A program made the translations under genes and the position numbers. The notes below the pieces were generated by a model. That model had not been told where the DNA came from and searched no databases. It saw nothing but the letters and a program-made list of their open reading frames with translations. This document shows, in pieces, positions 2,667 through 25,912 of a DNA stretch of 27,223 nt (positions are counted from its first letter, which is position 1; every line of letters starts with the position of its first letter). The DNA is taken from positions 1 to 27,223 of IMG/VR virus record IMGVR_UViG_3300031951_001010; one strand, 5' to 3'. This DNA is from a virus.

Positions 2667-2876
2667 ATGACTATTGACTTTAATGAAGAGTTTGATAAAG
2701 ATATTGATTATAAAGAATTTGATATTTGGTTACAAAATGGAATAGATCGTGGATGGATTACAATGCCATTTTGCTCTACACATGAAGGCGATCCGTACAT
2801 GAGTGAAGAAGAAGCACAAGAATGGGAAGACGGCGGAGATCCATGCTGTTTTGTCAGTAAATTTATTGGTCTGTAG
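2667..2876 (+). CDS. Small acidic protein of unknown function, end overlaps tRNA-Asn
   Basis: A 69-residue, strongly acidic protein with three Cys (CSTH, DPCCF) and aromatic residues. I do not recognise the family. A GGAG 11 bases before the ATG serves as ribosome binding site, and the gene follows the proteasome-like gene by 15 bases, probably co-transcribed. The last codons and the TAG stop (2874-2876) lie inside the 5' acceptor strand of the tRNA-Asn gene, so the two genes share 10 bases and the mature mRNA and tRNA cannot come from the same transcript molecule. Confidence 0.65.
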   Translation: MTIDFNEEFDKDIDYKEFDIWLQNGIDRGWITMPFCSTHEGDPYMSEEEAQEWEDGGDPCCFVSKFIGL

Positions 2877-2939
2877 CTCAGTCGGCAGAGCGGGAAGCTG
2901 TTAACTTCTAGGTCGTAGGTTCGAATCCTACCAGACCAG
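2867..2939 (+). tRNA. tRNA-Asn (GTT)
   Basis: Cloverleaf with acceptor TGGTCTG pairing CAGACCA, anticodon stem GGAAG/CTTCT, loop CTGTTAA with anticodon GTT, and T-arm GTAGG-TTCGAAT-CCTAC. CCA is not encoded. The 5' end overlaps the stop of the preceding gene. Confidence 0.93.
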
Positions 2940-2973
2940 CTAACATACAAAAGTATGTTTATTAAGGAGAAAA

Positions 2974-3336
2974 ATGGAAATCGTAGAAATTGTAGGAAAG
3001 TTGCTATTTAGTTATCTTTTCATTACATCTGGCATTTCTCACTTCAGATATTTTGATGAGACTGCTGCATACGCAAGAGCTAAGAAGTTGCTATTTGCTG
3101 ATCTTAATGTTATGATTAGTGGTGCTTTCCTAGTTGTTGCCCCAGTTCTTTTTGTATTGGGTTTCTTTGAAACAATTGTATTGATACTTATGTCTCTATT
3201 CTTGTTTCTTACAGCTATTTTGTTTCATGACTACTGGAATCAAACAGATATGCAAACAAAAATGAACGAAGAGCTTGCATTTAAGAAGGACATTTCTCTT
3301 CTTGGTGCTGCGTTAATTATAATTGCCTTGATTTAA
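2974..3336 (+). CDS. DoxX-like membrane protein
   Basis: A 120-residue, very hydrophobic protein with four predicted transmembrane segments (about residues 5-22, 47-67, 68-88 and 105-120). The pattern SGISHFRYFDETAAYA near the first helix and the cytoplasmic loop with HDYWN before the last helix match DoxX/DoxD-type small membrane proteins, linked in bacteria to redox or oxidative-stress complexes. AAGGAG at 2965-2970 sets the start. It sits between tRNA-Asn and the six-tRNA array and was probably acquired as an accessory host-type gene. What it does in infection is unknown. Confidence 0.7.
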   Translation: MEIVEIVGKLLFSYLFITSGISHFRYFDETAAYARAKKLLFADLNVMISGAFLVVAPVLFVLGFFETIVLILMSLFLFLTAILFHDYWNQTDMQTKMNEELAFKKDISLLGAALIIIALI

Positions 3337-3343
3337 TAAGGTT

Positions 3344-3417
3344 GGTCCGTTAGCTCAGTTGGTTAGAGCGCTACCCTGTCACGGTAGAGGTCATGGATTC
3401 AAGTTCCATACGGATCG
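3344..3417 (+). tRNA. tRNA-Asp (GTC), CCA encoded
   Basis: Acceptor GGTCCGT pairs ACGGATC (one G-U). Anticodon loop CTGTCAC gives GTC. T-arm ATGGA-TTCAAGT-TCCAT. The discriminator G is followed by a genomic CCA at 3418-3420, the only such case in this array. Confidence 0.93.
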
Positions 3418-3421
3418 CCAA

Positions 3422-3493
3422 GGCACTATCGTCTATCGGTCAGGACATCGCCCTTTCACGGCGGAAAGACGGGTTCGATTCCCGTTAGTGCTA
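3422..3493 (+). tRNA. tRNA-Glu (TTC)
   Basis: Acceptor GGCACTA pairs TAGTGCT. Anticodon stem CGCC/GGCG with loop CTTTCAC gives TTC. T-arm ACGGG-TTCGATT-CCCGT. It begins 1 base after the CCA of tRNA-Asp. Confidence 0.93.
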
Positions 3494-3494
3494 C

Positions 3495-3567
3495 GCTCCT
3501 ATAGCCCAGCGGTAGAGGCAATCGACTTAAAATCGATCAAGCGTTGGTTCGAATCCAACTAGGAGTA
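3495..3567 (+). tRNA. tRNA with anticodon TAA (Leu), short variable loop
   Basis: Acceptor GCTCCTA pairs TAGGAGT. Anticodon stem ATCGA/TCGAT with loop CTTAAAA gives anticodon TAA, which reads UUA (Leu). The variable region is only about 5 bases (CAAGC), whereas bacterial tRNA-Leu normally has a long variable arm. T-arm GTTGG-TTCGAAT-CCAAC is normal. Confidence 0.88.
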
Positions 3568-3571
3568 CGAA

Positions 3572-3644
3572 GTCCCTATAGCTCAGTTGGTAGAGCAACA
3601 GACTTTTAATCTGTGGGTCGTAGGATCGATACCTACTGGGGACA
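3572..3644 (+). tRNA. tRNA-Lys (TTT)
   Basis: Acceptor GTCCCTA pairs TGGGGAC. Anticodon stem CAGA/TCTG with loop CTTTTAA gives TTT. The T-loop reads ATCGATA instead of the usual TTCRANN, a small departure from consensus. Confidence 0.92.
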
Positions 3645-3645
3645 C

Positions 3646-3717
3646 GCCTCCCTAGCTCAGTGGTAGAGCATCCGCCTTGTAAGCGGAAGGTCGTCAGTTC
3701 AATCCTGACGGGGGGCT
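3646..3717 (+). tRNA. tRNA-Thr (TGT)
   Basis: Acceptor GCCTCCC pairs GGGGGGC (one T-G). Anticodon stem CCGC/GCGG with loop CTTGTAA gives TGT. T-arm GTCAG-TTCAATC-CTGAC. Confidence 0.93.
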
Positions 3718-3728
3718 CGGAATAAAAT

Positions 3729-3799
3729 GCGACTATTGCATAGTGGTAGTGCGTAACCTTGCCAAGGTTAATGTGTGAGTTCGATTCTCACTAGTCGCT
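3729..3799 (+). tRNA. tRNA-Gly (GCC)
   Basis: Acceptor GCGACTA pairs TAGTCGC. Anticodon stem AACC/GGTT with loop TTGCCAA gives GCC. T-arm GTGAG-TTCGATT-CTCAC. Last tRNA of the plus-strand array. Confidence 0.93.
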
Positions 3800-3800
3800 C

Positions 3801-3864: not shown

Positions 3865-4284
3865 ATGGTTACAACATATGCATGGGATCTATTTAAGGAT
3901 CCCTTTTTTATTGGATTCAATCGTGAAATGGAAAGATTGTCCAATGTTCAGTTAGCATCACGCAATACAAACTATCCACCTTATGACTTGATTAAGTTGG
4001 ATGATGATAAGTATAACTTATCTCTTGCTGTTGCTGGATTCTCTAAAGATGATATTGAGGTTTCTGTAGATAATGGAACCTTGGTTATTAGAGGAGAGAT
4101 TGCTGAAGTAGCAGATGCTGAAGTAGTTCACAAGGGTATTGCAAGTAGAAAGTTTACTCGCACATTTGCACTTGGAGAATATATGGAAGTGACTGGTGCC
4201 AAGATGGAAAATGGCATGCTACATATTGACATTGATCGCATTATTCCAGAAGAGAAGAAGCCAAAGTCAATTAAAATTAAGTAG
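3865..4284 (+). CDS. hsp20: Small heat-shock protein, Hsp20 family
   Basis: A 139-residue alpha-crystallin-domain chaperone. Residues about 38-130 carry the beta-sandwich pattern: YPPYDLIKLDDDKYNLSLAV, GFSKDDIEVSVDNGTLVIRGE, then FTRTFALGEYMEVTGAKMENGMLHID. The C-terminus ends in KSIKIK, with an I-x-I motif that binds neighbouring subunits in this family. Such proteins hold unfolding proteins without ATP. The N-terminus (WDLFKDPFFIGFNREMERL) resembles IbpA-type proteins. AGGAG at 3854-3858 is the ribosome binding site. Hsp20 genes recur in phages, where help with capsid assembly or stress survival is proposed. Confidence 0.9.
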   Translation: MVTTYAWDLFKDPFFIGFNREMERLSNVQLASRNTNYPPYDLIKLDDDKYNLSLAVAGFSKDDIEVSVDNGTLVIRGEIAEVADAEVVHKGIASRKFTRTFALGEYMEVTGAKMENGMLHIDIDRIIPEEKKPKSIKIK

Positions 4285-9274: not shown

Positions 9275-9663
9275 TGTTTGAAATTTTAACAGTAATATTC
9301 GGAATTACTTCCTTTTCTTTATTTTTAGTTGCAAATAAACTACAAAAGGATAATGCAATTTTAGCTCAGGCTATTATTGAGCAGACTGCCAATAAGATAG
9401 CAAGCAAATTAGATGATGAAGAAGAAATAATGAAAGAAAGCTTTCTTAAGTTTGTATCTGATTCTAGAGAGTGGGCATTTGAGTATATTGAAAATGTACA
9501 AAAACAAATTAAAGATTTTATAGATGTTGCTGATAAACAGTTTTCATTTTTTGATTCTTATGGAGTGCTTTCAGAAGGCCATCTTTATTATGAAAATATG
9601 AAAACTATATCAGAAGAATACAAAAAGCTAAAAGCTTTGTTGCCAGAAGAGGATAATAAATAG
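9274..9663 (+). CDS. Membrane-anchored coiled-coil protein
   Basis: A 129-residue protein with one N-terminal transmembrane segment (residues about 3-21, ILTVIFGITSFSLFLVA) and a long, charged helical part likely to form a coiled coil facing the cytoplasm (KLDDEEEIMKESFLKFVSD onward). No catalytic residues are seen. The start overlaps the previous stop and its stop region overlaps the next gene. Similar single-helix proteins are common in phage accessory regions. Function unknown. Confidence 0.62.
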   Translation: MFEILTVIFGITSFSLFLVANKLQKDNAILAQAIIEQTANKIASKLDDEEEIMKESFLKFVSDSREWAFEYIENVQKQIKDFIDVADKQFSFFDSYGVLSEGHLYYENMKTISEEYKKLKALLPEEDNK

Positions 9664-10679
9664 TGAATATGATTAAAGATATCTCTATATGTTTTGATGA
9701 TATTTTATTATTGCCACAACATTCCACAGTGTCAAGTAGACATTCTGTAGATCTTACTATGCATGGATATAGATTTCCAATTGTTGCTTCCCCGATGGAT
9801 ACAGTTTGCGAATTTGAAATGGCTAAAGCAATAGTAAATGAAGGTGGTATTGGAATTATCCATAGATATATGGACAGATCAGAAAGATTGTATCAAGTAG
9901 AAACTGCTGATCTTGCGTCTAGCTCTAAAGATGGAATTGGTATGGCTTTATCAGCATTAGAGTGTTATGATACAGAGCTTATTGACGATGCTATTGATGT
10001 AGGATGTAGGTGGTTTTGTATTGATACTGCTAATGGTCACGGTGAGGCTGCAATTGGAGCAGTAAGACACCTAAGAGCCTACTATCCAGGAATTAATATC
10101 ATGGTAGGAAATGTTGCAACAGCGGAGGGATTTGCTAGGCTTGCCGAAGCTGGTGCTGATGCAGTTAGGGTCGGTATTGGCGGTGGTGCTACTTGTATTA
10201 CCAGAATTGTATCTGGTCATGGAATGCCTACCCTACAGTCAATTATTGATTCATATGAATATAAGATAAACAATAATATTCATACATTAATTGTTGCAGA
10301 TGGGGGAATCAGAACATCTGGAGATATCGTAAAAGCCTTTGCAGCAGGTGCAGACTTGGTTATGCTAGGATCTATGCTGGCAGGTACAGAAGAGGCTCCA
10401 GGAGACCTTATAGACGGTTTTAAGACCCTTCGTGGCATGGCTAGTGAAGAAGCTCAGATGGACTGGAAGGGTGAGTCTTCTGTAGTTGAGGGCGTATCAA
10501 CAAAAATAAAATATAAAGGATCTGTTAAAAATATATTCAGTCAAATCAAAGGCGGTATTGGAAGCGGTTGTTCTTATTCTGGAGTAGATAAACTATCAGA
10601 ATTAGCAGAAAATGCAGAGTATGCAATTGTTTCTGCTCTTAGTCTTGGGGAATCAAAACCTCATGCTATACATCACTGA
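9663..10679 (+). CDS. IMP dehydrogenase / GMP reductase family enzyme without CBS domains
   Basis: A 338-residue TIM-barrel enzyme read from GTG 9663 (ATG 9669 is two codons on). Family marks in order: FDDILLLP at the start, SPMDTV (44-48), GGIGIIHR (61-68), the catalytic loop GGGATCITR with Cys178, [15 protein letters not shown], and the flap region RGMASEEAQ. It acts on IMP, XMP or GMP with a nicotinamide cofactor. It lacks the CBS pair of full IMP dehydrogenases and has GMP-reductase length, yet the end (LGESKPHAI) recalls the ESHPHD ending of IMP dehydrogenases, so the reaction stays open. It would adjust guanine nucleotide supply during phage replication. Confidence 0.85.
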
Positions 10680-14573: not shown

Positions 14574-14586
14574 TAAACACGTATAG

Positions 14587-14660
14587 TAGAACAGGTAGGA
14601 CTTGAACCTACGATGACCGAATTATGAGTTCGGGGCTTTAACCAACTAAGCTACTGTTCC
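14587..14660 (-). tRNA. tRNA with anticodon CAT (Met or Ile2)
   Basis: Read on the minus strand: acceptor GGAACAG pairs CTGTTCT, anticodon stem CGAA/TTCG with loop CTCATAA giving CAT, T-arm GTAGG-TTCAAGT-CCTAC. CAT could mean elongator Met or lysidine-modified Ile for AUA codons; sequence alone does not settle it. It ends the thyX operon region. Confidence 0.9.
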
Positions 14661-14905: not shown

Positions 14906-15595
14906 TTATTCCTTAAATATAGCAGAATATGTATGTGGAAATGATTCTTTTACAATTTGTTTTACAGCTTCTGCATATTCTCTAATTTCAAATTGTGCAT
15001 CGTTTGGAATCCTCTGTTGTAAAAAATTAATAATGGCTTGTAGACTGGCTGTCCATCTCCATCGAACATACATTCCATAGGCTGGTAAGAATAGTCTGGC
15101 AATTTCTGGTGCTACACCCAGTTGCAAAGCATCTTCATACATTTTTTTAGCCATAAGAGTTAGGTCATAGAGATTGTTTGTAAGTTTACCACCAATATCT
15201 ATTGGAAGTGGTTCGCCAGAACCCTGTTTAGAGTTTTCTGGCTTGCTTCTCCATTGACCACCTTTGGGAAGATAAAACTCTTCATTCTCTGTAATGTATC
15301 TACGAGATGATTCATTCCATCCATTTTGATCATCAATATGACTAGATGCTACTACATATTTCCACCATTGTCTTGCAACAAAAAGTGGAGCATAAACTTC
15401 AAAAGTAATGGTAGCATGTCTAAATGGAGAGGTATGTTCTTCTCTAATTAAAAAGTTAAGTAACTTTGCGTCTTTATCAGAAAATTCTAAAGACTCCTTA
15501 TCATATGAAACTCTTGCAGCATTTACTATTGATAGATCGCTGCCCATTTTATCTGCTAGTTTTACATAGCCTTTATCTAAAACATTAATTTTCAT
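14906..15595 (-). CDS. thyX: Flavin-dependent thymidylate synthase ThyX
   Basis: A 229-residue protein that makes dTMP from dUMP with FAD, NADPH and methylene-tetrahydrofolate. Family marks are NAARVSYDKES (25-35), HTSPFRHATITFEV (54-67) and the end of the ThyX motif, NESSRRY (94-100). The usual RHR of the motif reads KYV (79-81, in ARQWWKYV), and a few extra residues (SSHIDDQNGW) precede NESSRRY, a variant I associate with phage enzymes. C-terminal WRWTASLQAIINFLQQR matches the dUMP-binding helix. ATG overlaps the previous stop (ATGA). It supplies thymidylate for A+T-rich phage DNA. Confidence 0.88.
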   Translation of the reverse strand: MKINVLDKGYVKLADKMGSDLSIVNAARVSYDKESLEFSDKDAKLLNFLIREEHTSPFRHATITFEVYAPLFVARQWWKYVVASSHIDDQNGWNESSRRYITENEEFYLPKGGQWRSKPENSKQGSGEPLPIDIGGKLTNNLYDLTLMAKKMYEDALQLGVAPEIARLFLPAYGMYVRWRWTASLQAIINFLQQRIPNDAQFEIREYAEAVKQIVKESFPHTYSAIFKE

Positions 15596-16826: not shown

Positions 16827-17462
16827 CTATATATTATATAATGATTTTAAATGTAAAAATAGTTTATTAGACAATTCTTTTGATAAATGTGAACCATCCA
16901 TGCTTTCCTCTTTCATTAGTTCATCTGTTTTTGTAATATTATAGGAAACACGAACTGGGGCATCTAAATTATTTTTACTACATTCTTCTCTTAAAGATTT
17001 AACAAAACGATTTTGCATAGCCATTCTTTCTTCTATCGTTCCTTTTCGGCCCCAAGGAATCATGTCGTAATCAAAATATGTATACGCAAATTCTGATCCT
17101 TCCATTATGACATTAGACTGAGGAACTGGTTCTATAAAATGTATTTTACATTTTTTTGTTTCAAAAAAATTTAATGTTTTTTCTACATATGTTTTTGCTA
17201 ATAGCTCTGGATTATCATGTTCTACTAAATGAATTCTTATATCAACTTCACCAAAAAATGGTAAGATTACCCAGCTATCATCAATCAATGCGTATACTTC
17301 TTCAAATTTTGATCCACCATTAGCATATTCAAAACTATAGCATGGCCTTCCAGAATAGGTTAATATATGCACACCATCTTGAAAAAATAAATCATGCTCC
17401 ACTTTTTTATCTATTAAATAGCCAGTATGTGAATCTCCAATAACTAACATATTTTTAATCAT
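16827..17462 (-). CDS. SGNH/GDSL-type hydrolase
   Basis: A 211-residue protein starting MIKNMLVIGDSHTGYL: GDSH (9-12) is block I with the catalytic Ser11. EVDIR near residue 72 fits the block III area, and DGSHLS near residue 190 supplies the Asp-x-x-His pair of block V. Such enzymes remove acetyl or acyl groups from sugars and lipids; in this sugar block it may edit O-acetylation of a surface glycan. GGGGGAG 9 bases upstream is a strong ribosome binding site. No signal peptide, so it is cytoplasmic. It follows a possible 40-residue Cys peptide with an 8-base overlap. Confidence 0.75.
   Translation of the reverse strand: MIKNMLVIGDSHTGYLIDKKVEHDLFFQDGVHILTYSGRPCYSFEYANGGSKFEEVYALIDDSWVILPFFGEVDIRIHLVEHDNPELLAKTYVEKTLNFFETKKCKIHFIEPVPQSNVIMEGSEFAYTYFDYDMIPWGRKGTIEERMAMQNRFVKSLREECSKNNLDAPVRVSYNITKTDELMKEESMDGSHLSKELSNKLFLHLKSLYNI
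16833..16838 (-). promoter_or_regulatory. -10 box of the 28-residue micro-gene
   Basis: Minus-strand TATAAT 7 bases before ATG 16825, placed in the final codons of the SGNH hydrolase gene. No -35 box is clear. Confidence 0.35.
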
Positions 17463-20084: not shown

Positions 20085-20405
20085 ATGACAGTTTTATATT
20101 TACTTTATCACCCAGAACTAAAAGCTATCAAAATAGGTATATCTGATATTTCTGGTAGACGGTATCGCAAGCATAAAACACAGGGATGGGTGCTCATTCG
20201 GTACTGGTATTTTTCCGAGCGGGGTATAGCAAAAAGAGTCGAATCCACCCTAATAGAAACACTAACCAATAAACACGGACATTTCCTTGATAAGAAAGAT
20301 ATGCCACAACACGGCTATACAGAAACGTTTGATGCCTCAAAAATAACACGTAGAGGTTTGATCCGTATGGTCAATAAGGCTATAAAAGATTTAGATATTT
20401 CTTGA
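20085..20405 (+). CDS. GIY-YIG / T5orf172-like protein
   Basis: A 106-residue protein. LYLLYHPELKAIKIGISD and RRYRKHKTQGW follow the GIY-YIG-like pattern (VYLL..., IKIGxS, R, basic His/Lys), and the Glu in VESTLIETL fits the catalytic Glu. Such domains nick DNA in homing, repair or viral T5orf172-type proteins. The mRNA should be leaderless. Its end overlaps the minus membrane gene tail to tail by 15 bases. It lies next to the putative origin, so a role in replication or recombination is possible. Confidence 0.6.
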   Translation: MTVLYLLYHPELKAIKIGISDISGRRYRKHKTQGWVLIRYWYFSERGIAKRVESTLIETLTNKHGHFLDKKDMPQHGYTETFDASKITRRGLIRMVNKAIKDLDIS

Positions 20406-20627
20406 TTCCAGGTCAGATATTCTTTTGATGAGTGGTTTGATCATAGCCTTCACAAGCAGATAGTCGCAGGCTAATCCAACAAATAAACCGACCAAAAACC
20501 AGATCACACTTGACATATAAAGATTATACCGCATGCAAAGTTCGGCGGTAAATAGAAGACTACCAAACACTCCTAATAACAACCATAAGGAATAACACAT
20601 ATGAGATATAGCCTGATATGAAACCAT
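20391..20627 (-). CDS. Small two-helix membrane protein
   Basis: A 78-residue protein with hydrophobic segments at about residues 11-28 (CYSLWLLLGVFGSLLFTAE) and 38-60 (MSSVIWFLVGLFVGLACDYLL), then a charged end (IKPLIKRISDLESRN). No family recognised. It is the first minus gene left of the origin region and may be transcribed from the leftward origin promoter (20967-20995), which would give a leader of about 330 bases. Confidence 0.55.
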   Translation of the reverse strand: MVSYQAISHMCYSLWLLLGVFGSLLFTAELCMRYNLYMSSVIWFLVGLFVGLACDYLLVKAMIKPLIKRISDLESRNI

Positions 20628-20701
20628 ATAGGAAGATAGCTGGTTTACACATTAGGATATCCTTGATACTTTTATGTTTCATATGGCTATTATACATATA
20701 C

Positions 20702-20897
20702 TTTTCCACAGGGTTATCCACAGATATTGATATAAAAATGTGATTGTTTGATAGAGTTATCCACAGATATCGTTGATATTATGGTTTAAAAATGTAGGTT
20801 GTCAACAGGTTATCCACATGTTTATCCACAGAAAAATGTTACTGATATTTTTATTATATAGGGTTAAAGTGGAGAGAAGTGGAGGATAGTGGAGTAT
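20702..20897. other. Probable replication origin: DnaA boxes, A+T-rich stretch and iterons
   Basis: Five DnaA boxes in one orientation: TTTTCCACA (20702-20710, one mismatch) and perfect TTATCCACA at 20714-20722, 20757-20765, 20810-20818 and 20822-20830. An A+T-rich run (20831-20862) follows, then three tandem 10-bp repeats. This order of DnaA boxes beside an easily melted stretch and iterons is the classic layout of DnaA-dependent origins and many plasmid origins. No replication initiator is encoded next to it, so host DnaA would be used. Confidence 0.7.
20868..20897 (+). repeat. Three tandem 10-bp repeats (AGTGGAG core)
   Basis: AGTGGAGAGA (20868-20877), AGTGGAGGAT (20878-20887), AGTGGAGTAT (20888-20897). 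Seven of ten bases are constant and the period equals one helix turn, as for protein-binding iterons. Confidence 0.8.
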
Positions 20898-20966
20898 AGA
20901 GCACTTTCTGTAGAGCGGCCCTTCTTTCCAAACATCCCAAACCACATATCCTGGATATCCCGCTGC

Positions 20967-20995
20967 ATTTTACACCAAACATATGTGTTTGTCAA
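20967..20995 (-). promoter_or_regulatory. Leftward origin promoter TTGACA-N17-TAAAAT
   Basis: Minus strand: TTGACA at 20990-20995, 17-base spacer, TAAAAT at 20967-20972. It points through the iterons and DnaA boxes toward the membrane-protein gene. Its sequence closely copies the rightward promoter at 21267-21295. Confidence 0.68.
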
Positions 20996-21096
20996 ACCTC
21001 AATATCCCCAAATATGCCCATAAAAAATATCAAAAAACCATATAAAAATGTTTGAAAATGTGGAAAAATATTTGGATATCGTAATGTTTTATTTGG

Positions 21097-21141
21097 AAAT
21101 GTTTGAAAACTTTCAGGGATTTTTTGGAAGGCGTTCTTAAT
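21097..21141 (+). repeat. Origin repeat, copy A
   Basis: AAATGTTTG-AAACTTTCAGGGATTTTTT-GCGTTC-TAATG module, about 45 bases, matching copy B at 21292-21337 with a few substitutions and a one-base gap. It is followed by the 21170-21210 hairpin. Confidence 0.65.
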
Positions 21142-21169
21142 GTCTTTTATGGTATCAAGGGGATCTCTC

Positions 21170-21210
21170 TATACCCTGCCGCCTGCGGCGGCGTTAAATG
21201 GCGGGGTATA
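21170..21210. other. Strong G+C hairpin in the origin region
   Basis: TATACCCTGCC (21170-21180) pairs with GGCGGGGTATA (21200-21210), with one T-G pair. The enclosed GCCTGCGGC can form an inner hairpin, or GCCGCC/GGCGGC can form in competition. It may be a terminator without U-tract or a cruciform; it separates repeat copy A from the rightward promoter. Confidence 0.55.
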
Positions 21211-21266
21211 AAAGAATATCCCAAACACCTATATACCCATATACAGTATATAGAAGCTATAAGGGT

Positions 21267-21295
21267 TTGACAAATAGAGATGTTTGATATAAAAT
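21267..21295 (+). promoter_or_regulatory. Rightward origin promoter TTGACA-N17-TAAAAT
   Basis: TTGACA at 21267-21272, 17-base spacer, TAAAAT at 21290-21295. Transcription would start near 21302 and meet the GCCCCC hairpin at 21423-21438. It has the same GGTTTGACAAA and ATGTTTG elements as the leftward promoter. Confidence 0.68.
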
Positions 21296-21337
21296 GTTTG
21301 GCAAACTTTTAGGGATTTTTTAGATGCGTTCGTAATA
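21292..21337 (+). repeat. Origin repeat, copy B
   Basis: Second copy of the 45-base module (AAATGTTTGG, AAACTTTTAGGGATTTTTTA, GCGTTCGTAATAA). It lies at the start of the predicted rightward transcript. Confidence 0.65.
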
Positions 21338-21444
21338 AAATTTCTGGAAATGTTTTTGGTGTTTCGTAATATGGAAATATATATGTTTGTCGTAAATGTC
21401 CGATTTGTATAGGTTTGATCCGGCCCCCCGAAGGGGGCTTTGTC
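21302..21444 (+). ncRNA. Possible origin transcript of about 140 nt
   Basis: Between the rightward origin promoter and a G+C hairpin with TTTGTC lies a region without open frames, carrying repeat copy B and several CGTAA motifs. It could be a replication primer or regulatory RNA like those at plasmid origins. Rests on promoter and terminator calls only. Confidence 0.4.
21423..21444. terminator. Hairpin terminator at the early-gene end
   Basis: GCCCCC (21423-21428) pairs GGGGGC (21433-21438). The loop is CGAA on the plus strand and a stable TTCG on the minus strand. It follows the stop of the leftward gene at 21449 by 11 bases and, read rightward, is followed by TTTGTC. Confidence 0.65.
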
Positions 21445-21448
21445 AAGC

Positions 21449-21712
21449 TTACTTTCCAAACCTCATTAGCAAATCCTCTAATGATTCATATTCCTCATCA
21501 GGGGCTTCTAGTGAAGCAAGTAGTAGGTCATATGTTTCATTGATATAGATTTCTGCTTCAGGGGTCTTATTGACTATACCCTCGGCTAGAAAATATCCCA
21601 ATGGCAAACCTATATCATTGTATTCTATGAAGTCTTGAAAGTTTGCTTCATCTCTGAACTCCATCCAAAGTGAACCAAGAATCTCACACTTCTTAGAGAA
21701 GTCTATCGGCAT
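21449..21712 (-). CDS. Early-region protein of unknown function
   Basis: An 87-residue acidic, helical protein (MPIDFSKKCEILGSLWMEFRDEANFQDFIEYNDIG, then ESLEDLLMRFGK). It looks like a small phage or plasmid early protein; no domain recognised. It overlaps the end of the gene at 21693-21926 by 20 bases and is the last gene of the leftward early block before the origin. Confidence 0.6.
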   Translation of the reverse strand: MPIDFSKKCEILGSLWMEFRDEANFQDFIEYNDIGLPLGYFLAEGIVNKTPEAEIYINETYDLLLASLEAPDEEYESLEDLLMRFGK

Positions 21713-24895: not shown

Positions 24896-25912
24896 TTATG
24901 CAATCGCTAACACATTTTGCACTGTTTGCAATATGCGATTCTTTTCTGCAGTAATAGAAGCATCAAAGCCAGAAGCAGCAGCAAGCACTGATTCATTATT
25001 ACCACCACGAGCAGAGCGATGCCAATCTAATCTCTCAGTGAGAGCATTCATTGCACCCCATGCAGTGTTAGCAATCATGCCATTGAACTCACCCGTATAA
25101 ATATCATTGATGAGGTCAATCTTATTTTGCCACTTAGTGAGAGCAATCTTCTTCTCACCTTCTGGCTTAGGATATACCGCAAGCACAATATCATTGAATT
25201 GTTGCGCTGTGATTTCTTTCTCAATCATGGTCTTAGCCATGAGATCAAAAGCATCCATGTATTTATTAGCAAGCCCAAGAGTCTCACGAGCAATCTGAAC
25301 ACGACCTGTTGCAGATTGTGTGTGACGAATCTTGAACGATTGTTTGACGGCATTCTTGCCACGCTTAGAGCCTAGAGCAAGATTGAGAGTATTGGCGCAT
25401 ACAACACGAACGGGCGTGATTGATGCCTGAATAGCAATAGACCCGTCATGCGAGGTATTGATGAGAAGATAAGTCTTTACCTTATCGGATACACCGCTAG
25501 GGTCTAGCACTGTCTCACGCTCAAGAGCAAGAGAGCCAAATACTACACGCCCACCCTTGATTGAGCCAGCCGTTTCCCAACGACCGCCACCATCAAGAAT
25601 GTTATCTCCGAATGCAAATAAATCTTCATTCTGCAATGGAACATAACGCTCACCAACAACACCTAGAACATCTGTCTGGTTATTGTTAGTAGGATTAGTG
25701 CGAACAACATATTGATAAGACTTATCTGATGTAAGAGTATTAGGAATCTCAACATCAACAAGGCGAACATTCCAGTTGTTTAGATTAGCAGCAGCCAACA
25801 TTTCTGCTGTATTCTTTTCCTCCATGAATACGGTTCCAAGACCATGCCATGCAGGTTCACGGAAAGATGCAAAAGATGCAGCCCCGTTTTGTGTTTCTAA
25901 CTCATGAGCCAT
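24896..25912 (-). CDS. DUF932 phage/plasmid-like protein
   Basis: A 338-residue protein of the DUF932 family found in phages, plasmids and conjugative elements. Recognisable parts are PAWHGLGTVF near the start, the block VLGVVGERYVPLQNEDLFAF, TPVRVVCANTLNLAL (about 165-180), and a C-terminal helical part with EFNGMIANTAWGAMNALTE. Members are expressed early and abundant, but the biochemical role is not established. The SD CTAGAAAGGA and a TTGATA-17-TAAACT promoter precede it. Single-gene unit with a following hairpin. Confidence 0.88.
   Translation of the reverse strand: MAHELETQNGAASFASFREPAWHGLGTVFMEEKNTAEMLAAANLNNWNVRLVDVEIPNTLTSDKSYQYVVRTNPTNNNQTDVLGVVGERYVPLQNEDLFAFGDNILDGGGRWETAGSIKGGRVVFGSLALERETVLDPSGVSDKVKTYLLINTSHDGSIAIQASITPVRVVCANTLNLALGSKRGKNAVKQSFKIRHTQSATGRVQIARETLGLANKYMDAFDLMAKTMIEKEITAQQFNDIVLAVYPKPEGEKKIALTKWQNKIDLINDIYTGEFNGMIANTAWGAMNALTERLDWHRSARGGNNESVLAAASGFDASITAEKNRILQTVQNVLAIA

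What the first reader, a model, noticed from the sequence alone, without database searches (positions are those of the whole stretch)
20702..20897. DnaA-box origin with iterons in a phage genome
Four perfect TTATCCACA plus one near-match, all in one direction, spaced 12, 43, 53 and 12 bases, next to an A+T-rich stretch and three 10-bp AGTGGAG repeats. Most tailed phages bring their own initiator; this looks like use of host DnaA, as in P1 oriR and many plasmids.
Basis: partly seen in the sequence, partly recalled or inferred. Interest (0 to 1): 0.75.

Follow-up and report, generated by a model that had tools for sequence, protein, structure and literature searches.

The report
Phage genome-end site with host boxes
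A stretch of non-coding DNA in a freshwater bacterial virus, first read as a replication origin, most likely marks the end of the virus's linear genome and carries ready-made docking sites for two host cell-cycle proteins, DnaA and MraZ; it would matter because it points to host cell-cycle control of a virus genome end.

Summary
In detail: TTATCCACA at 20714, 20757, 20810, 20822 plus TTTTCCACA at 20702, all +, then A+T-rich DNA and three AGTGGAG repeats at 10-bp period. The origin reading is only partly supported. The core (window ~20809-20907) is conserved non-coding DNA in 109 of 161 sequences. (1) The "iterons" match the MraZ operator: the same triple repeat in bacterial genomes lies upstream of mraZ in 73 of 80 loci examined. 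None of 20 long relatives encodes MraZ or DnaA. (2) The third repeat runs into the motif that precedes the direct terminal repeat in related Streptomyces phages (clear in EGole, MindFlayer, Tomas, Wakanda; weak in three; absent in Annadreamy). An oriented TCGTAA array starts at the known repeat start in isolates and at the predicted cut (~20898/20899) here. (3) DnaA boxes are optional: 47 of 76 distinct elements have them, and they lie elsewhere in other relatives. GC skew does not switch here. Best reading: the terminal-repeat boundary of a large actinophage, with host-MraZ boxes and an adjacent DnaA cluster that may start replication. Binding, cutting and replication are untested.

The parts
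20702..20710 (+). near-match DnaA box TTTTCCACA
20714..20722 (+). perfect DnaA box TTATCCACA
20757..20765 (+). perfect DnaA box
20810..20818 (+). perfect DnaA box (first of the 12-bp pair; pairs at 11- or 12-bp spacing recur in relatives)
20822..20830 (+). perfect DnaA box (second of the pair)
20831..20866 (+). A+T-rich stretch with conserved TTACTGAT (20839-20846); TTACTG is present in 75 of 76 distinct relatives' elements, with or without DnaA boxes
20868..20894 (+). three AGTGGAG boxes at 10-bp period (20868, 20878, 20888): MraZ-operator-like
   Evidence: site rule (AAAGTGKN3)3 in PMC5282649
20887..20899 (+). terminal-repeat boundary motif; predicted cut between 20898 and 20899 (a few bases uncertain); DNA to the right would be the start of the direct terminal repeat
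21079..21395 (+). same-strand TCGTAA array (21079, 21330, 21364, 21390), with a GGG then A/T block about 18 bp upstream of each in the family consensus
20628..21448 (.). non-coding gap that holds the whole cis-acting region (between ORFs 20391-20627 - and 21449-21712 -; one 76-aa ORF 21229-21459 - overlaps the TCGTAA array and is judged spurious)
24896..25912 (-). DUF932 protein, the syntenic anchor; in Boydwoodruffvirinae isolates it is encoded inside the terminal repeat

Best explanation
The element is the left boundary of a long direct terminal repeat (the end-forming, packaging site) of a large actinophage related to Stanwilliamsviridae. It is built as DnaA boxes, then an A+T-rich segment with TTACTGAT, then three MraZ-type boxes, the last of which overlaps the cut motif, then the repeat, which opens with an oriented TCGTAA array. 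Most likely mechanism: the phage terminase cuts concatemers just after the third box (about 20898/20899). Host MraZ, for which the boxes are a ready operator, binds over or beside the cut and helps position or gate it. Host DnaA, where boxes are present, binds left of it, melts the A+T-rich DNA and starts a fork into the repeat, which would help duplicate the repeat for packaging. Shown: conservation, motif identity, synteny, onset of the array, absence of mraZ and dnaA matches from 20 phage relatives. Inferred: cutting here in this phage (about 0.8), MraZ binding (about 0.6), DnaA binding (about 0.85), replication start here (about 0.45).
For: Conserved core in 109 of 161 sequences, 77 distinct. 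Terminal-repeat starts found in 8 isolates by exact match of the record's first 40 bases at the right end; the junction reads GATAGTGTGTAATG| in EGole, MindFlayer and Tomas, against freshwater-phage GATAGTGGGTAATG or GATAGTGGAGAATG. A weight matrix built only from freshwater elements ranks the junction 1st of 36,484 positions (MindFlayer), 1st of 33,196 (Wakanda), 2nd of 41,274 (EGole), 25th (Tomas), 47th (Comrade), 134th (Bmoc), 243rd of 62,140 (NootNoot). Forward TCGTAA density rises from about 0.6 to 4.7-6.5 per kb at the predicted cut in 148 distinct elements, reverse 0.03; 5 of 5 Boydwoodruffvirinae show 4-6 forward and 0 reverse in the first 750 bp of the known repeat. DnaA boxes lie within 120 bp left of the repeat start in 4 of 5 Boydwoodruffvirinae. 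The triple box is upstream of mraZ in 73 of 80 bacterial loci, and of no mraZ in 119 viral loci. 39 of 41 small-genome actinobacteria of the probable host group have MraZ, and their printed mraZ upstream regions carry such repeats, whereas 28 of 31 Streptomyces genomes have no match and 3 only weak partial hits, which goes with the absence of true boxes in Streptomyces phages. 3 of 28 whole contigs end 3, 13 and 29 bp past the predicted cut (weak).
Against: Annadreamy does not fit the junction motif (rank 13,239), and Bmoc and NootNoot fit poorly. The motif segment was chosen after seeing EGole, and isolates share ancestry, so ranks are not independent. No terminal repeat can be seen in this 27-kb fragment. 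The 3 contig ends could be assembly breaks at conserved DNA. Streptomyces-phage repeats (AGTGTG at 11-bp spacing) may mean that the repeats are sites of a phage protein such as small terminase, and that the MraZ match is convergent; a similar GTG-core repeat is bound by a different regulator, HsdC (PMC5282649). 29 of 76 elements lack DnaA boxes. TCGTAA is absent at the repeat start in 3 of 3 Loccivirinae. The host is inferred from one gene only. No promoter or terminator excess was found in the gap.
Confidence: 0.65

Rival explanations
1. One reading: a DnaA-dependent replication origin; the match to the terminal-repeat boundary is incidental or secondary.
For: Clustered same-strand boxes beside A+T-rich DNA; perfect boxes 48 in nine long relatives against 8 for the reversed sequence; in 3 of 3 Loccivirinae a DnaA-box set sits in a ~1.4-kb non-coding gap away from the repeat boundary, as an independent module would.
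Against: No GC-skew switch in the window or in three long relatives; boxes absent in 29 of 76 elements and no perfect box in G013; conservation centres on the MraZ/cut part.
Confidence: 0.35
2. The 10-bp repeats are binding sites of a phage protein, such as small terminase, and resemble MraZ boxes by convergence; host MraZ plays no role.
For: Repeats abut the boundary motif; Streptomyces phages NootNoot, EGole and Bmoc have related GTG-core repeats at 11-bp spacing there; 0 of 20 relatives encode MraZ or a MazE/AbrB-type match.
Against: Close fit to the MraZ site rule (AAAGTGKN3)3 and to host-type operators; two element classes share it (98 and 19 of 119); phages of hosts with MraZ have it and those of Streptomyces, which mostly lacks it, do not.
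Confidence: 0.3
3. A regulatory or decoy region: the phage titrates or uses host DnaA and MraZ to steer transcription or host division.
For: Further DnaA-box pairs in intergenic early regions beside TGTGAT..ATCACA-like palindromes; MraZ is a repressor of division genes (PMC8475190 passages).
Against: One triple box per genome is a poor decoy; no promoter excess in the gap; the genes flanking the gap on the right run towards it, so the boxes have no obvious gene downstream to control.
Confidence: 0.2

Closest known systems
Terminal-repeat boundary of Stanwilliamsviridae (Streptomyces phages NootNoot, EGole, Bmoc, MindFlayer, Tomas)
   Same: synteny (right arm, non-coding gap, minus-strand repeat genes with DUF932), boundary motif, TCGTAA array, DnaA boxes within 120 bp in 4 of 5
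   Different: no true MraZ boxes; DnaA boxes inverted, not same-strand; DUF932 protein identity about 50%
Bacterial mraZ operator
   Same: three GTGG-type boxes at 10-bp period (site rule in PMC5282649)
   Different: no mraZ signature downstream in 119 of 119 viral loci; third box overlaps a phage boundary motif
DnaA-box origins of chromosomes, plasmids and P1 oriR (recalled)
   Same: DnaA-box cluster plus A+T-rich DNA
   Different: boxes optional in the family; no skew switch; no Rep match among the proteins scanned
Lambda cos with host IHF (recalled)
   Same: idea of a host DNA-binding protein used at a phage end site
   Different: host factors would be MraZ and DnaA; long direct repeats, not cohesive ends; binding unproven

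Membership tests
Stanwilliamsviridae-type terminal-repeat boundary | boundary motif at the repeat start | tested here: met
   strong in 4 of 8 isolates, weak in 3, absent in Annadreamy
Stanwilliamsviridae-type terminal-repeat boundary | TCGTAA array starting at the boundary | tested here: met
   148 freshwater elements and 5 of 5 Boydwoodruffvirinae; 0 of 3 Loccivirinae
Stanwilliamsviridae-type terminal-repeat boundary | a direct terminal repeat in this genome, cut at this site | not testable with these tools
   the record is a 27-kb fragment; no reads or virion ends
MraZ operator | three (AAAGTGK N3) boxes at 10-bp period | tested here: met
   AAAGTGG, GAAGTGG, ATAGTGG in the window, i.e. two of three boxes with one mismatch
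MraZ operator | lies upstream of mraZ / the dcw cluster | tested here: not met
   0 of 119 viral loci; 0 of 20 relatives encode MraZ
MraZ operator | bound by MraZ | not testable with these tools
   needs a binding assay
DnaA-dependent origin | cluster of DnaA boxes with adjacent A+T-rich DNA | tested here: met
DnaA-dependent origin | GC skew switches at the site | tested here: not met
DnaA-dependent origin | boxes conserved across relatives | tested here: inconclusive
   47 of 76 distinct elements; none perfect in G013
DnaA-dependent origin | replication starts here | not testable with these tools
   needs marker-frequency sequencing
Iteron origin with phage or plasmid Rep | rep gene near the iterons | tested here: inconclusive
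   no Rep among 10 proteins in PHROGs and 20 submitted to Pfam (some proteins in both); 87% of PHROGs are unnamed

The most novel reading that the evidence does not exclude
A widespread group of freshwater actinophages has placed a complete host cell-division operator (MraZ boxes) over its own terminase cut site, beside host DnaA boxes, so that genome-end formation and end-proximal replication are gated by the host's division and replication regulators; phages of Streptomyces, whose hosts mostly lack MraZ, have lost or never had these boxes.
Probability: 0.3. Interest if true: 0.82.

Novelty: new variant of a known kind. Interest (0 to 1): 0.62.

Why it matters
It would be the first case known to me of a phage using the operator of MraZ, a widespread regulator of cell division, and it ties a phage genome end to host cell-cycle proteins. 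It also gives a sequence handle for finding genome ends of uncultured large actinophages, which metagenome assemblies hide. The paper searches made listed no paper on MraZ sites in phages; one search listed only 25 of 239 papers, many of which probably hold a personal name rather than the gene.

Tried and rejected
Origin by GC skew: no switch at the element. Iterons of a phage Rep: no Rep found among the proteins scanned. Own DnaA, MraZ or MazE/AbrB-type protein: 0 of 20 relatives each. Nucleotide relatives among phage isolates: only weak hits, so protein anchors were used. Promoter or terminator excess in the gap: none. Structured RNA: only tRNAs. DnaA-trio reading of TTACTGAT..: set aside because TTACTGAT stays where DnaA boxes are gone. 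Contig ends at the cut: 3 of 28 whole contigs, kept as a weak hint because shared DNA can break assemblies. The first regular expression for host operators found 6 of 30 and partly misaligned; it was replaced by printing upstream regions and reading them. One search's strict cluster rule missed elements with fewer boxes; profile search replaced it. Structure prediction and metagenome scans were not used.

Full report
Observation. The four perfect boxes, the near match, their spacing and strand, the A+T-rich stretch and the three AGTGGAG repeats are all present. They are far beyond chance: 0 of 400 simulated windows had even two boxes within 130 bp or a triple repeat. The window is a whole virus record of 27,223 bases and a fragment.

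Relatives. Protein anchors to the right of the element (an 87-aa protein at 21449-21712 and a DUF932 protein at 24896-25912) gave 160 viral loci. Profile search found a conserved non-coding core in 109 of 161 sequences (window included), 77 distinct. Some of the 52 misses are truncated loci and others carry different arrangements. Without the window there are 76 distinct elements: TTACTG in 75, a relaxed triple box in 73, the strict triple in 32, and at least one perfect forward DnaA box nearby in 47; reverse boxes occur in 1. So the conserved heart is TTACTGAT plus the repeats, and the DnaA boxes are optional.

The repeats are MraZ-type boxes. I recalled MraZ as a candidate, then tested it. 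The seven without are L302, L314, L317, L319, L338, L345 (too short) and L353. The class regular expressions are loose; one search prints the sequences. A passage in PMC5282649 gives the MraZ core site as (AAAGTGKN3)3, and passages in PMC8475190 describe MraZ as a repressor binding MraZ boxes; of the two primary papers on MraZ sites named there, one was looked up and is not held, the other was not looked up.

Host side. The phage IMPDH-type protein matches best a set of small genomes (about 1.2-2.2 Mb) among 296 of one class (39-43% identity, so weak host evidence). In the family of the best one, 39 of 41 genomes have MraZ, and the 30 mraZ upstream regions printed show GTGG-type repeats near the gene, most with clear 10-bp period (read by eye). 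In Streptomyces, 28 of 31 genomes have no MraZ match and 3 have weak partial hits in 513-602 aa frames.

The element sits at the terminal-repeat boundary. The nearest isolates by DUF932 are Stanwilliamsviridae (about 50% identity among the best). I fetched 8 records of 537 with a match, or of that family, chosen for diversity and not at random (Wakanda came from the weak nucleotide hits). Their repeat starts were found by exact match of the first 40 bases at the right end: repeat lengths 10.8-12.8 kb in five Boydwoodruffvirinae and 0.7-1.8 kb in three Loccivirinae. In the former the order is right arm, non-coding gap, repeat with minus-strand genes including DUF932, as in the window. The boundary word GATAGTGTGTAATG precedes the repeat in EGole, MindFlayer and Tomas; freshwater elements have GATAGTGGGTAATG or GATAGTGGAGAATG at the third box. 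A matrix from 45 freshwater elements ranks the boundary 1, 1, 2, 25, 47, 134, 243 and 13,239 among all positions of the eight stretches.

Independent support. TCGTAA, noticed only later, is sparse before the cut but jumps to 4.7-6.5 per kb, on one strand only, in the 750 bp after the predicted cut in 148 distinct elements, then falls away by 1,000 bp; the 5 Boydwoodruffvirinae show the same at their known repeat starts, the 3 Loccivirinae do not. The family consensus has a GGG and A/T block about 18 bp upstream and frequent 34-37-bp spacing. In the window it lies at 21079, 21330, 21364 and 21390.

DnaA boxes form a separable module. They lie within 120 bp left of the repeat in 4 of 5 Boydwoodruffvirinae (not Tomas), in a 1.4-kb non-coding gap 5.5-6.3 kb away from the repeat start in 3 of 3 Loccivirinae, and about 540 bp to the other side of a triple repeat in class B loci L157, L159, L161, L163 (the triple is only loosely MraZ-like in L159 and L163). 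Nine long relatives hold 48 perfect boxes against 8 for the reversed sequence; G013 has none. Second clusters lie 6-13 kb to the right in several of them, in intergenic DNA. The same-spaced pair of boxes occurs in 7 of 21 genomes of the probable host family, control 0.

Interpretation. The best-supported reading is an end-forming site with host-factor boxes. That the phage is cut here, that MraZ and DnaA bind, and that replication starts here are inferences. The most novel reading, gating of phage end formation by host MraZ, is not excluded; its main rival is that the repeats serve a phage packaging protein and resemble MraZ boxes by convergence.

Noticed in passing
window 21079-21395 and 148 related elements: Strand-oriented TCGTAA array (consensus GGG - A/T block - about 9 bp - TCGTAAT) in the first 750 bp after the predicted cut; function unknown, could be initiator sites or promoters.
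   Followed up: partly
L268, L431, L442, L443, L451, L460, L488, L495 and others: Class B element: triple MraZ-type boxes behind TATCCCCCTCCC..AGCCCTTAGAAGGCTTATAT, no adjacent DnaA boxes; a second group with the same boxes.
   Followed up: partly
G003, G006, G008, G010, G011, G018 (coordinates): Second DnaA-box pairs or a five-box cluster (G018 16942-17007) in intergenic DNA, often beside TGTGAT..ATCACA palindromes and CGGGCGTGTCG; perhaps DnaA as an early-gene regulator.
   Followed up: no
MT024865 119039, NC_048728 121979, MH536811 118873: Loccivirinae share a 1.4-kb non-coding gap with palindromic DnaA boxes and conserved TATGTGAGAAAAGCTCTGT; possible origin of these isolates.
   Followed up: no
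window 2867-3800: Seven tRNA genes, six of them clustered at 3344-3800; an eighth, tRNA-Met, at 14586-14660.
   Followed up: no
window 9663-10679, 14906-15595, 3865-4284: IMPDH/GMP reductase-type, ThyX and HSP20 genes, host-like metabolic genes in a phage.
   Followed up: partly
window 20085-20405: Small protein matching the end of an endonuclease PHROG, next to the element.
   Followed up: no
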